Assembly: GCA_019347725.1 (NCBI GenBank)
Contig: JAHWKV010000038.1
Location: forward strand, 1-7,695
Direction of reading: 5' to 3'
Source of the DNA: Actinomycetota bacterium
Lineage (GTDB): Bacteria > Actinomycetota > CADDZG01 > JAHWKV01
Length of the DNA: 7,695 bases
Below are positions 4,386-6,585 of this stretch, one piece after another. How positions within the stretch are numbered: position 1 is the stretch's first letter; every line of letters starts with the position of its first letter. Under the pieces are notes generated by a model, which was given only the letters and a program-made list of their open reading frames with translations, was not told the origin of the DNA and did not search any database. The position numbers and the translations under genes are program-made.

Positions 4386-5314
4386 GGAAGCGCGGTCACC
4401 CCCGCCTGGAACAGGTGGATGAAACCGACCGGCAATAGGACGGTCCAGGCCATCTCCACAAAGCTCTCCGGCCGAAAACGGCCGAGCGCCTGCGCCACGA
4501 CCAGAGCCAGCAGAAGCACGACCAGCGTCTTGACGGCCACCCAGACCGGTCCGGGGAGCCAGGGCCCCAACCATCCGCCCAGGAAGATCGTCGCTCCCAT
4601 GGCCGAGAAGACCACCAACAAGGGGGCTCTCCCTGCCTCCCAGAGCAGCCGGTCCCATCCGGAGGATTCGACGGAGGTGCCGCCGGCCAAGTCCCGGCCA
4701 TCCGGAAGATTGAGAGGTCCTCGGAAGCTGACTCCGACAATGATCACGATCCACAAGGGCAGACCCAAAGGCTGCTTCACGAGGTTCGGCAGGCCCTGTT
4801 GAGTTACCACCATCTGCTGGATGCTCAAGGACTGGGCCGGCAGAGCCGCCGCTATGAGCACGAACATGCTCAGTAAGGTGTAGGAAAAGGCTTGGATTAC
4901 AAACCGGTAGCCGCCGATCAGCGAGAAGGTTGAGTTGGGTGACCAACCCCGCAGGAACACCACCACGATTATCAGCGCCTCCACGGCGCCCCACAACACG
5001 ATCCCGGACTCAAAATCGGCCATCACCCAAGTCGACGACAAAGGGATAAGGGAAGCCGCCAGGGCAGCTAATGGCAGCAGACCGGCCGTGGCGACCATCC
5101 AGCCGATTACATCGGGCCGCTCGGTTCTTACCGTCTGTTGCTTGGCAAGCCAGGCGGCCTTGCGCAGTGGCGCCAACAGCAACGTGGGGCCCGGGCTTAC
5201 TCCTGCGCCGATGCGTGCGATGGCCGACTCGAGGACGGTTGCAGCATAGGCTCCGACGCCCAGCATCAGGACAACGGCTGCGACCTCGAGGGCCCACGAC
5301 GCAACGGCGCTCAT
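4382..5314 (-). CDS. nuoH: NADH-quinone oxidoreductase subunit H, highly divergent at quinone and E-channel residues
   Basis: This is the subunit that forms the quinone cavity floor in ordinary complex I, 310 aa, slightly short. Recognisable blocks: GPTLLLAPLRKAAWLAKQ (43-60), LRGWSPNSTFSLIGGYRFVIQ (121-141; family AGWASNSKYALLGGLR), QPLGLPLWIV (181-190), LNLPDGRDLAGGTSVESSG (201-219; family FDLPEAESELVAGYHTEYSG), and FLGGWLGPWLPGPVW (244-258). Many invariant residues are changed by hand alignment: RxGPNR at the cavity entrance is lost, SYE reads SYT (E. coli E157), ETNRAPFD reads SFRGPLN, the EAESE cluster is reduced to DGRD, and the AEY after it reads AGR. ATG at 5314 overlaps the stop of the preceding BD-like gene (ATGA), with GGGTGG upstream. 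It is a clear NuoH homologue that probably cannot bind or reduce quinone as usual. Confidence 0.93.
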   Translation of the reverse strand: MSAVASWALEVAAVVLMLGVGAYAATVLESAIARIGAGVSPGPTLLLAPLRKAAWLAKQQTVRTERPDVIGWMVATAGLLPLAALAASLIPLSSTWVMADFESGIVLWGAVEALIIVVVFLRGWSPNSTFSLIGGYRFVIQAFSYTLLSMFVLIAAALPAQSLSIQQMVVTQQGLPNLVKQPLGLPLWIVIIVGVSFRGPLNLPDGRDLAGGTSVESSGWDRLLWEAGRAPLLVVFSAMGATIFLGGWLGPWLPGPVWVAVKTLVVLLLALVVAQALGRFRPESFVEMAWTVLLPVGFIHLFQAGVTALP

Positions 5315-6585
5315 TCGACCACCCGGCGCTCGGCAAGGGCTATGTCCTGAAGGTCCACACCCAAGCTGGCGATGAACGATACGGCGTCGGACCATTCCAG
5401 ACCCGGGACATGCTCCTCGATAAGGCTCAACAGCGCCGGCGACGAACCGGATCCGGGCACACCGTGGACGCCTTCGACCACGTTCCCCGACGTCGAGCCG
5501 GTCCCCGCTTTCGAGGCCAGCTCCAACGCTTGCTCTGCTTCATCGAGCATTTGCAGCAAGCGGTCCAAGCAGTCGCCAGAGCTCCGCGTTATCGGAGCAA
5601 AGCCGAGCCGCAGGTAGCCGGCATCATCCAGGCGAGCGTCCTCCTCCACGCCCGACGCCCGAGCCGTAGGACCAAGACCGGATCCTTGCAACTCCTCAGC
5701 AGGCAGGCGAACCACTCCTCGGGCACTCCAGCGCACGCCGGCGATCAACGCCCTTCGGAGCCGGGATAGCCCCCGCTGATCTCCGCCGCTCGGATCGGCA
5801 GCCCGGGTGCGCAGCCGCCGACCCAGAGACTCCAAACCCGCCACTTCGACGGCGGAAGCTATGGTCCCGAGAAGATGCGCGGCTCGTAGCGTCTCCACTC
5901 GAGCGATCGGAACAGCTTCCCTCTGAGCCTGCTCGAAAAGCGCATAGGATTTCTCCGCAGGCTTACCCAACTCCAGATACGGGTTCGGTTGCAGGCCGAC
6001 ATCGGCCACCACGTCCCCGTGCAACTCGAGACGCAGTTCCAGTCCCGGCGGCAAGGCCGGATGGAAGGGTCCTACCCCGACGTTCAGTGCATCTAGCATG
6101 AGCCCGTCCCGGTCGGGGGCCATCTCGGCCATGGGCCGGCCAAAGGGCTTGCCACCCATCATTCCCTCGCCGCCCTGGCCGAACGGCCCGACCCCCCGCC
6201 ACTCAGCCGGCGGGCTATCCGGCAGCCAATCCGGTTCGCTGGCGTGTCGGCCGGCAACGAGAGCCCGGAAGCCATCAACCACGGACTGAATCGGATCCGA
6301 GGAGTCGGCAACCACTGCTTTTCCCCAATTGGTGGGGTCTTCTTGGGTACCGGCTAGTGCAGTAAAACGCGGGTGAGGCATCTGATCATGGATGCTTTGC
6401 ACGGGCCCAACGAGCCGCGGCGGAAGGGTGCCGGCGATGACCAGGACTGCCGCATGGCGCGGCGAGGCAACCAGCCTGGCGCGCGGATCCGTCCGCAGGG
6501 ATGAAACCAACGGACACCCTCCCCCGCCGGTAACCGCAAAGACCGGAACCGTGGTGGAAGCAGCCAGGCGACTGAGCAGACTCAC
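5311..6585 (-). CDS. Fused NuoB-like/NuoD-like protein lacking cluster N2 ligands
   Basis: The product is 424 aa, a soluble fusion placed where nuoB-nuoC-nuoD normally sit between nuoA and nuoH. Residues ~1-112 resemble NuoB: PVFAVTGGGGCPL, then ASPRHAAVLVIAGTLPPRL and DQMPHPRFTALAGT (family ASPRQADxxIVAGT ... DQMPEPRxVISMGSC). Of the four N2 cysteine positions only one Cys (C24) is present; MGSCA reads AGTQE and PGCPP reads DSSDP. Residues ~113-165 form a Gly-rich linker (GQGGEGMMGGKPFGRPMAE). Residues ~166-424 resemble NuoD: VGVGPFHPALPPGLELRLEL (family FGPQHPAAHGVLRLxLEL), TARASGV at 307-313, and a C-terminal WSDAVSFIASLG block. The HRGTEK His and the DYVS Tyr of the quinone site are not found, and the central part is ~150 residues short. 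The GTG at 6585 overlaps the nuoA stop (GTGA); GTG at 6591 is the alternative. It is likely a structural cap. Confidence 0.82.
   Translation of the reverse strand: MSLLSRLAASTTVPVFAVTGGGGCPLVSSLRTDPRARLVASPRHAAVLVIAGTLPPRLVGPVQSIHDQMPHPRFTALAGTQEDPTNWGKAVVADSSDPIQSVVDGFRALVAGRHASEPDWLPDSPPAEWRGVGPFGQGGEGMMGGKPFGRPMAEMAPDRDGLMLDALNVGVGPFHPALPPGLELRLELHGDVVADVGLQPNPYLELGKPAEKSYALFEQAQREAVPIARVETLRAAHLLGTIASAVEVAGLESLGRRLRTRAADPSGGDQRGLSRLRRALIAGVRWSARGVVRLPAEELQGSGLGPTARASGVEEDARLDDAGYLRLGFAPITRSSGDCLDRLLQMLDEAEQALELASKAGTGSTSGNVVEGVHGVPGSGSSPALLSLIEEHVPGLEWSDAVSFIASLGVDLQDIALAERRVVE

What the first reader, a model, noticed from the sequence alone, without database searches (positions are those of the whole stretch)
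5311..6585. NuoB/NuoD fusion without N2 cluster ligands: a non-redox cap on complex I?
The gene between nuoA and nuoH encodes both a NuoB-like and a NuoD-like region in one chain. Read directly, the protein has only two cysteines (C24 and C339), while cluster N2 needs four in the NuoB part. Hand alignment places Gln at the MGSC position and Ser/Asp at the PGCPP position. The frame is intact over 424 codons with the usual start and stop overlaps, so it is not simple decay. The inference is that it was kept for structure or regulation rather than electron transfer.
Basis: partly seen in the sequence, partly recalled or inferred. Interest (0 to 1): 0.85.

Follow-up and report, generated by a model that had tools for sequence, protein, structure and literature searches.

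The report
Copper-linked complex I without redox centres
This gene cluster encodes a relative of the respiratory enzyme complex I that lacks the ligands of its last electron-carrying cluster, carries conserved methionines in the subunits that link the enzyme's head to its proton pumps, and in many related bacteria sits among copper-resistance genes, so it likely uses the proton gradient to move copper ions out of the cell rather than to breathe.

Summary
One intact 424-codon gene between nuoA and nuoH encodes a NuoB-like and a NuoD-like region, with two cysteines and no N2 ligand motifs. It belongs to a family: 195 homologues found, none of the 99 aligned with an N2 motif. Operons nuoA-BD-H-J-K-L-M-N lie among copper-resistance genes: 22 of 34 Actinomycetota family loci, against 0 of 32 canonical nuo loci from the family-bearing genomes. 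The B/D junction carries either an invariant Gly/Met loop or, in other members, heavy-metal-binding domains and His/Met-rich linkers; no locus of 49 had both. Twenty columns of NuoA, NuoJ and NuoK, the E-channel subunits, are Met in the family but not in canonical relatives; NuoH, NuoL and NuoM have 0-1. Key proton-path residues of NuoL and NuoM are kept. I infer a proton-driven Cu(I) exporter on a complex I chassis. Non-redox and metal-linked are well supported; transport, direction and copper as substrate are inferred. One paper (PMC8233155) noted a copper-linked nuo cassette in Marinobacter and proposed copper redox as its energy source.

The parts
5311..6585 (-). BD gene: NuoB-like/NuoD-like fusion, 424 codons, GTG start, no N2 ligands
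6340..6489 (-). NuoB-like core (residues 33-82)
   Evidence: profile-profile E 1.6e-9
6091..6201 (-). Gly/Met loop, residues 129-165, holding most of the invariant columns (Met142 99/99, Met143 88/99, Met152 94/99); low pLDDT (50-65) in the model; HMBD/His/Met linkers lie here in other members
5335..6123 (-). NuoD-like domain (residues 155-417), shortened by about 110 residues relative to NuoD
6582..6935 (-). nuoA
   Evidence: PF00507 94.9 bits
6708..6728 (-). NuoA segment EMEMMFM: acids E70 and E72 kept, family-specific M71, M73, M76
4382..5314 (-). nuoH; the canonical SYE/AYE glutamate is Thr146 here (Glu kept in 7 of 45 family rows)
3813..4385 (-). nuoJ
   Evidence: PF00499 67.4 bits
4113..4196 (-). 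NuoJ TM3 and following loop with invariant Met (M64, 65, 69, 72, 76, 80, 89, 91; M81 nearly so)
3518..3823 (-). nuoK (start taken at ATG 3823; the listed ORF begins at 3877)
3602..3739 (-). NuoK segment with both E-channel glutamates (E35, E73) and family Met at M29, M31, M70, M74 (F67 here where most members have Met)
1605..3521 (-). nuoL, proton-path residues E133, K211, H236, H320, K324, K378 kept
179..1624 (-). nuoM, K227 and K258 kept, D144 and D409 at the two acid positions; last transmembrane stretch missing at the contig end
7069..7278 (-). C-terminal fragment of a copper-resistance CopD-like gene, upstream of nuoA
   Evidence: PF05425 36.0 bits (cut-off 32.1); not hit by the CopD queries

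Best explanation
The operon encodes a complex I relative without N2 cluster ligands that is likely a proton-driven copper(I) exporter. Shown: the B and D subunits are fused and have no cluster ligands; the fusion carries an invariant Gly/Met loop or, in other members, heavy-metal-binding domains at the B/D junction; the E-channel subunits NuoA, NuoJ and NuoK carry conserved methionines, five of them spaced 4, 3, 4, 4 along the NuoJ helix whose counterpart ND6 TM3 gates complex I; NuoL and NuoM keep key proton-path residues; many of the operons lie among copper-resistance genes. Inferred: the BD cap takes Cu(I) from the cytosol into the old quinone chamber, the methionines hand it along the old E-channel and across the membrane, and inward proton flow through NuoL/M/N pays for it. 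Proton antiport, the export direction and copper rather than silver or another metal are untested.
For: Non-redox. Operon: 11 plasmid records with all eight genes annotated. Copper context: 12 of 14 plasmid loci fetched (15 found) carry copper genes, but these loci supplied the query proteins. Test on Actinomycetota: 23 of 34 family loci had a hit, against 0 of 32 canonical loci of the family-bearing genomes and 0 of 20 of other genomes; one of the 23 (L073) rests only on an ATPase that is cadmium/zinc-type, so 22 of 34, p 3e-9. Leaving out instead the two loci that supplied queries: 21 of 32, p 6e-9. Outside the dominant taxonomic family f13: 7 of 19 against 0 of 18, p 0.008. Metal capture: HMBD 106.7 and 80.5 bits; Met loop in 23, strict HMBD pattern in 19, both in 0, neither in 7 of 49 loci; at least 4 His in the NuoJ tail in 14 of 22 other members but 0 of 22 of the HMBD clade. 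Met columns: NuoA 3, NuoJ 12, NuoK 5, NuoH 0, NuoL 0, NuoM 1, NuoN 2 (mixed rows), against 0-1 canonical-specific; overall Met is lower than canonical in H/L/M/N, so it is not composition. Proton path: NuoL E133, K211, H236, H320, K324, K378 in 41/41. Literature, passages only: ND3/ND6/ND4L form the E-channel and ND6 TM3 is its gate (PMC7613608); CusA, a proton-driven antiporter, is suggested to pass Cu(I) along a methionine ladder (PMC7558416); in Marinobacter atlanticus a nuo cassette is co-expressed with copper genes (PMC8233155).
Against: No transport data exist. Twelve of 34 loci have no copper gene by my queries, including 3 of 4 of f38, 2 of 3 of f11 and several short contigs; ArsR-type regulators precede nuoA in the three f38 loci tested, and an ArsR regulator with a cadmium/zinc-type ATPase lies near L073. 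Some hits are weak or generic: the ATPase counted in L071 is calcium-type. HMBD and His-rich linkers are not copper-specific. The helix-face test on all seven TM3 Met is not significant (R 0.45, p 0.14); p 0.003 holds for five chosen after looking. NuoN lost its TM5 Glu (Leu, Val or Gly in 34 of 34) and NuoH its SYE Glu in 38 of 45, so proton coupling must differ from complex I. In the window itself the copper link is one CopD fragment, its NuoJ tail has 1 His, and nuoN is absent from the contig.
Confidence: 0.47

Rival explanations
1. Copper-redox-driven ion pump: oxidation or reduction of bound copper replaces NADH/quinone chemistry and drives proton export, as the Marinobacter authors suggested.
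For: Co-expression with copper genes and the authors' proposal; multicopper oxidases and cytochromes c nearby in several islands; NuoL/M residues kept.
Against: No conserved cysteine column; the NuoD stretch that would hold the quinone Tyr is missing and the His of the HPxxHG loop is not conserved (residue roles recalled). Met-only sites favour a fixed Cu(I) state, and oxidases and cytochromes c are exported while BD should be cytosolic by its homology (recalled).
Confidence: 0.15
2. Copper import or delivery machine: same path, opposite direction or purpose, supplying copper to oxidases.
For: Same anatomy; direction is not set by sequence.
Against: Neighbours are mainly resistance genes (CsoR in 16, HMA chaperone in 15, P-type ATPase in 17 of 34 loci, of which one is calcium- and one cadmium/zinc-type); metal-collecting inserts are on the cap, cytosolic by homology.
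Confidence: 0.12
3. Metal-gated proton valve or sensor: metal binding to the cap opens or closes proton flow without metal crossing the membrane.
For: Metal-binding cap on an antiporter arm; explains inserts without a full path.
Against: Does not explain 20 conserved Met columns in NuoA/J/K.
Confidence: 0.12
4. The same machine for another metal (Ag, Zn, Cd), in some or all members.
For: ArsR-type regulators upstream of nuoA in f38 loci; ArsR and a cadmium/zinc-type ATPase near L073.
Against: CueR, CsoR, CopB/C/D, DUF305 and multicopper oxidases are the usual neighbours elsewhere; Met favours Cu(I)/Ag(I) (recalled).
Confidence: 0.1
5. The reader's purely structural or regulatory cap that sits on canonical complex I parts.
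For: No redox ligands; 31 of 32 hosts also encode canonical NuoB.
Against: The operon has its own membrane arm, one side of a branch in the NuoM tree (support 100), lies away from canonical loci and carries metal features.
Confidence: 0.04

Closest known systems
Respiratory complex I (NDH-1)
   Same: NuoA, H, J, K, L, M (and N in relatives) with antiporter residues; NuoD fold; NuoB core
   Different: No N2 ligands, no NuoE/F/G/I/C in the operons seen, shortened NuoD, Met in the E-channel subunits, metal-binding junction in relatives, copper neighbourhood
Marinobacter atlanticus nuoADHJKL copper cassette (PMC8233155, passages read)
   Same: Complex I-like genes inside a copper operon, co-expressed with it; probably the same family, as Marinobacter fonticola has a member
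   Different: The passages read annotate nuoD and do not mention the B/D fusion, lost N2 ligands, metal-binding loop or Met columns; they report no nuoM/N
CusA/CusB proton-driven copper efflux (RND)
   Same: Proton-driven Cu(I) export along a suggested methionine ladder (PMC7558416, passages); one HMBD-type BD hits the CusB profile weakly (20.8 bits, cut-off 390)
   Different: Unrelated fold (recalled); works alike only if the inference here is right
Mrp cation/proton antiporter
   Same: Non-redox ion exchange with subunits related to the complex I membrane arm (PMC7613608 passage)
   Different: Mrp lacks NuoA, H, B and D (recalled); here they are kept and modified

Membership tests
Respiratory complex I (NDH-1) | Four N2 cysteine ligands in NuoB | tested here: not met
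Respiratory complex I (NDH-1) | NuoE/F/G electron-input module in the same operon | tested here: not met
   11 plasmid operons as annotated hold A, BD, H, J, K, L, M, N only; the window stops after nuoM
Respiratory complex I (NDH-1) | Quinone-site His and Tyr of NuoD | tested here: not met
   HPxxHG reads HPALPPG here and its first His is not conserved in 21 aligned members; the Tyr stretch falls in the missing part. Residue roles recalled; Tyr108 is named in the passage
Respiratory complex I (NDH-1) | NuoK and NuoA E-channel acids | tested here: met
   NuoK E 44/44 and E/D 44/44; NuoA D/E 49/49 and E 49/49
Respiratory complex I (NDH-1) | NuoH SYE glutamate and NuoN TM5 glutamate | tested here: not met
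   NuoH Glu in 7 of 45, Thr in the window; NuoN Glu in 0 of 34, nuoN not in the window
Respiratory complex I (NDH-1) | Antiporter Lys and acids of NuoL and NuoM | tested here: met
   NuoL 41/41; NuoM Lys 40/40 twice, acids E/D 40 of 41 and 39 of 40
Group 4 NiFe hydrogenase | NiFe cysteine pairs in the large subunit | tested here: not met
   no conserved Cys column in 99 homologues
NuoB/C/D fusion (PRK13292) | Score over the curated cut-off | tested here: not met
   30.4 of 1156 bits
Heavy-metal transporter | Metal-binding domains in the complex | tested here: inconclusive
   HMBD in relatives; the window's protein has only the Met loop, whose metal binding is not shown
Heavy-metal transporter | Metal translocation | not testable with these tools
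   needs bench work

The most novel reading that the evidence does not exclude
Complex I has been turned into a copper pump: the electron-input cap became a Cu(I)-collecting cap, the E-channel became a methionine ladder through the membrane, and the proton arms run backwards to drive Cu(I) export. It is a second, independently evolved kind of proton-driven copper exporter, carried on chromosomes and plasmids of Actinomycetota and Pseudomonadota, with homologues of its cap in further phyla.
Probability: 0.42. Interest if true: 0.93.

Novelty: new variant of a known kind. Interest (0 to 1): 0.82.

Why it matters
How complex I couples chemistry at one end to proton movement at the other is still argued over. 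A natural relative that has dropped the chemistry, kept the proton arms and re-lined the very coupling region with methionines would be a direct test bed for what that region does. If the inference holds it also adds a transporter class to bacterial copper resistance, found on plasmids and now annotated as NADH dehydrogenase subunits and hypothetical proteins.

Tried and rejected
Decay or pseudogene: rejected, frame open and conserved, dN/dS below 1. Hydrogenase-related (Ehr-like) reading: rejected for lack of conserved Cys. Helper of canonical complex I: unlikely, own membrane arm and separate loci. G+C or Met composition bias: rejected, Met is lower than canonical in H/L/M/N. The first NuoN table mixed NuoL/M rows and the window's nuoM into NuoN; it was redone with the window row and rows L062, L063, L068 dropped and rows of 300 residues or less left out. 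The first canonical NuoJ set had one row, so canonical NuoJ was collected again, 20 rows. Family rows include near-copies (plasmid records and the same replicons in genomes, such as L028/L099 and L064/L093; L026/L066; L062/L067/L068), so row counts are not independent events. The HMBD clade was set by clade; L095 in it has a His/Met-rich linker without HMBD, and L030 could not be scored. The NuoJ model is moderate (pLDDT 72) and was used only for helix limits. The VIA fold search spanned residues 157-417 and gave no fold test of the NuoB-like part. On re-checking, the copper-gene count was lowered from 23 to 22 of 34 and the odds for copper as substrate slightly with it. Literature: nothing describing a cluster-less, metal-binding complex I relative was found in searches; the library lacks most subscription papers. 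Seen of papers: passages and the second half of the reference list of PMC8233155 (its reference 69, a thesis on Marinobacter copper resistance, was not seen), passages of PMC7613608 and PMC7558416, search listings for the rest.

Full report

Redox parts are gone. The alignment to canonical NuoB covers only the stretch between the CC pair and the MGSC cysteine and puts Gln81 at the latter; no CCxxE, GSC or PGCP occurs in the first 170 residues of any of 99 homologues. Half of these proteins have some cysteine in the NuoB part (51 of 99) but at no shared position: the commonest column there has 8 of 99. About 110 residues of NuoD are missing, including the stretch that in complex I carries the quinone-site tyrosine, and the HPxxHG loop reads HPALPPG, its first His not conserved (residue roles recalled, Tyr108 also named in PMC7613608).

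It is a family. The protein search, which scored a capped list of candidates, gave 195 homologues at E up to 1e-3, 120 of them listed, with names from Actinomycetota, Dehalococcoidia, Myxococcota and Pseudomonadota (Salinicola, Marinobacter, Stutzerimonas, Halomonas, Caenispirillum). In Actinomycetota 32 of 396 genomes, the window's included, hold it at E up to 1e-20. Thirty-one of the 32 also have canonical NuoB over its cut-off; the exception is the window's own genome, where a canonical nuoB is cut by the end of contig C114. Selection on BD is purifying but moderate (dN/dS 0.30-0.62). In a NuoM tree of rows over 380 residues the 39 family rows form one side of a branch with support 100 against 36 canonical rows (FastTree, canonical rows from Actinomycetota only).

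The copper neighbourhood. A protein search of plasmids gave 15 records; I fetched 14. Eleven show the eight genes nuoA-BD-H-J-K-L-M-N as annotated, though BD is annotated in two pieces in L068 and short in L063 and nuoH in two pieces in L064; two Martelella records have the operon cut by a transposase gene; L030 has fragmented annotation but hits for all eight genes by tblastn. Twelve of the 14 carry copper genes by my queries: CueR or CsoR, copper ATPases, multicopper oxidases, CopB/C/D, DUF305; L063 and L067 do not. Because these loci supplied the queries, the test was made on Actinomycetota genomes. Of 36 matches I fetched 34 (not the window itself, nor a third fragment in G392); two pairs are pieces of one genome's gene. 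Twenty-three of the 34 have at least one hit, against 0 of 32 canonical nuo loci, one per family-bearing genome, and 0 of 20 from other genomes. A later check showed that the only hit of L073 is a cadmium/zinc-type ATPase and that the ATPase of L071, which also has a four-helix copper protein, is calcium-type: 22 of 34, p 3e-9. Two of the 34 loci are the Rubrobacter plasmids that supplied queries; without them the original count is 21 of 32, p 6e-9. Fifteen loci belong to one taxonomic family (f13, all positive); outside it 7 of 19 against 0 of 18, p 0.008. Loci without hits include short contigs, 3 of 4 of f38 and 2 of 3 of f11; ORFs upstream of nuoA in the three f38 loci tested are ArsR-type regulators. 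In the window a CopD fragment lies just upstream of nuoA (PF05425, 36.0 bits); my CopD queries did not hit it.

Metal-binding parts of the cap. Between the NuoB-like and NuoD-like regions our type has the stretch with most of the invariant columns, WxGxGxxGQGGEGMMGGxPYGRPM...DRDGLxLD, with Met142 in 99, Met143 in 88 and Met152 in 94 of 99. In Rubrobacter relatives and several Alphaproteobacteria the same place holds HMBD heavy-metal-binding domains (106.7 and 80.5 bits in two tested) and long His/Met-rich linkers, mostly ending FMSMVEMT. Across 49 loci the Met loop occurs in 23, the strict HMBD pattern in 19, both in none, neither in 7; of these seven, two are the cut Martelella copies, L092 and L097 have variant HMBD-like sequences, L095, L089 and L098 have His-rich linkers. 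NuoJ carries a His-rich C-terminal tail (at least 4 His) in 14 of 22 members outside the HMBD clade and in 0 of 22 within it, as if one collecting device replaces the other; the window's NuoJ tail has one His.

Methionines in the membrane. Comparing 42-49 family rows per subunit with 14-42 canonical rows, columns that are Met in at least 80% of the family and in under 30% of canonical rows number 3 in NuoA, 12 in NuoJ, 5 in NuoK, 0 in NuoH, 0 in NuoL, 1 in NuoM and 2 in NuoN; the reverse is 0-1 (the NuoN rows there were mixed). Seventeen of the 20 columns in A/J/K hold in every row or all but one, in both the Met-loop and HMBD types; rows include near-copies. NuoJ TM3 and its loop read MMAVEMVAMALFMVMFMMNPAGLNPMEM in the window, with Met where all 20 canonical rows have Tyr. 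In NuoK the Met lie 6 and 4 residues before one conserved glutamate, and 6 and 3 before and 1 after the other; in NuoA they sit beside the two acids. Positions 65, 69, 72, 76 and 80 of NuoJ fall on one helix face (R 0.88, p 0.003), but these five were picked after looking; all seven TM3 Met give R 0.45, p 0.14. [quoted passage not shown]

Proton arms. NuoL keeps E133, K211, H236, H320, K324 and K378 (41 of 41 rows with a residue) and NuoM K227 and K258 (40 of 40) with Glu or Asp at its two acid positions (40 of 41, 39 of 40; Asp in the window); NuoK and NuoA keep their acids. But the SYE glutamate of NuoH is kept in only 7 of 45 and the TM5 glutamate of NuoN is Leu, Val or Gly in 34 of 34 while Glu in 33 of 33 canonical. 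So the far arms look competent for protons while the coupling end is rebuilt.

Mechanism. I commit to proton-driven Cu(I) export: capture by the cytosolic cap, passage along the methionines of the former E-channel, powered by proton entry through the antiporter arms. Shown: loss of cluster ligands, metal-binding inserts in relatives, Met columns, copper neighbourhood of many members, kept antiporter residues. Inferred: that the Met loop binds copper, that metal crosses the membrane, direction, metal, stoichiometry. The closest functional model is CusA, described as a proton-driven antiporter in which Cu(I) is suggested to step along a methionine ladder (PMC7558416).

Prior work. In Marinobacter atlanticus a nuoADHJKL cassette interrupts a copper-resistance operon and is expressed with it; [quoted passage not shown] That is independent support for the copper link and a rival on mechanism. 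I found no report of the fusion's lost ligands, metal-binding junction or Met-rich subunits in the searches listed under Tried and rejected.

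Noticed in passing
window 7353-7430 (-): Group II intron-like RNA (RF00029, 32.3 bits, below the gathering score of 40) at the contig end; it may interrupt the copD gene, of which only the C-terminal part was found at 7069-7278.
   Followed up: partly
window 1-230: G+C is 0.77 in the first 200 bases (0.62-0.66 from 201 to 1200) and NuoM loses its last transmembrane stretch there; no nuoN on the contig. Chimeric assembly or a real rearrangement.
   Followed up: partly
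L077:8806-9171, L078:10852-11217, L080:10849-11211: ArsR-type regulators directly upstream of nuoA in a taxonomic family (f38) mostly without copper genes by my queries; they might sense another metal.
   Followed up: partly
L073:12690-15055: An ArsR-type regulator and a cadmium/zinc-type P-type ATPase lie about 1.5 kb beyond nuoA in an f28 genome.
   Followed up: partly
L029, L065: In two Martelella plasmids only nuoA and a truncated BD remain before an ISL3 transposase gene.
   Followed up: no
L026, L066: Roseivivax marinus carries two near-identical copies of the operon plus copper genes on two plasmids.
   Followed up: no
L062, L063, L068: A separate proton-conducting transporter (NuoN-like) gene piece lies on the opposite strand upstream of the operon in three Rhodobacterales plasmids.
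   Followed up: no
L025, L061: An APC family permease gene lies between the copper genes and the operon in Halomonas and Acuticoccus; ion-channel or potassium-channel genes sit upstream of nuoA in L029, L061 and L065.
   Followed up: no
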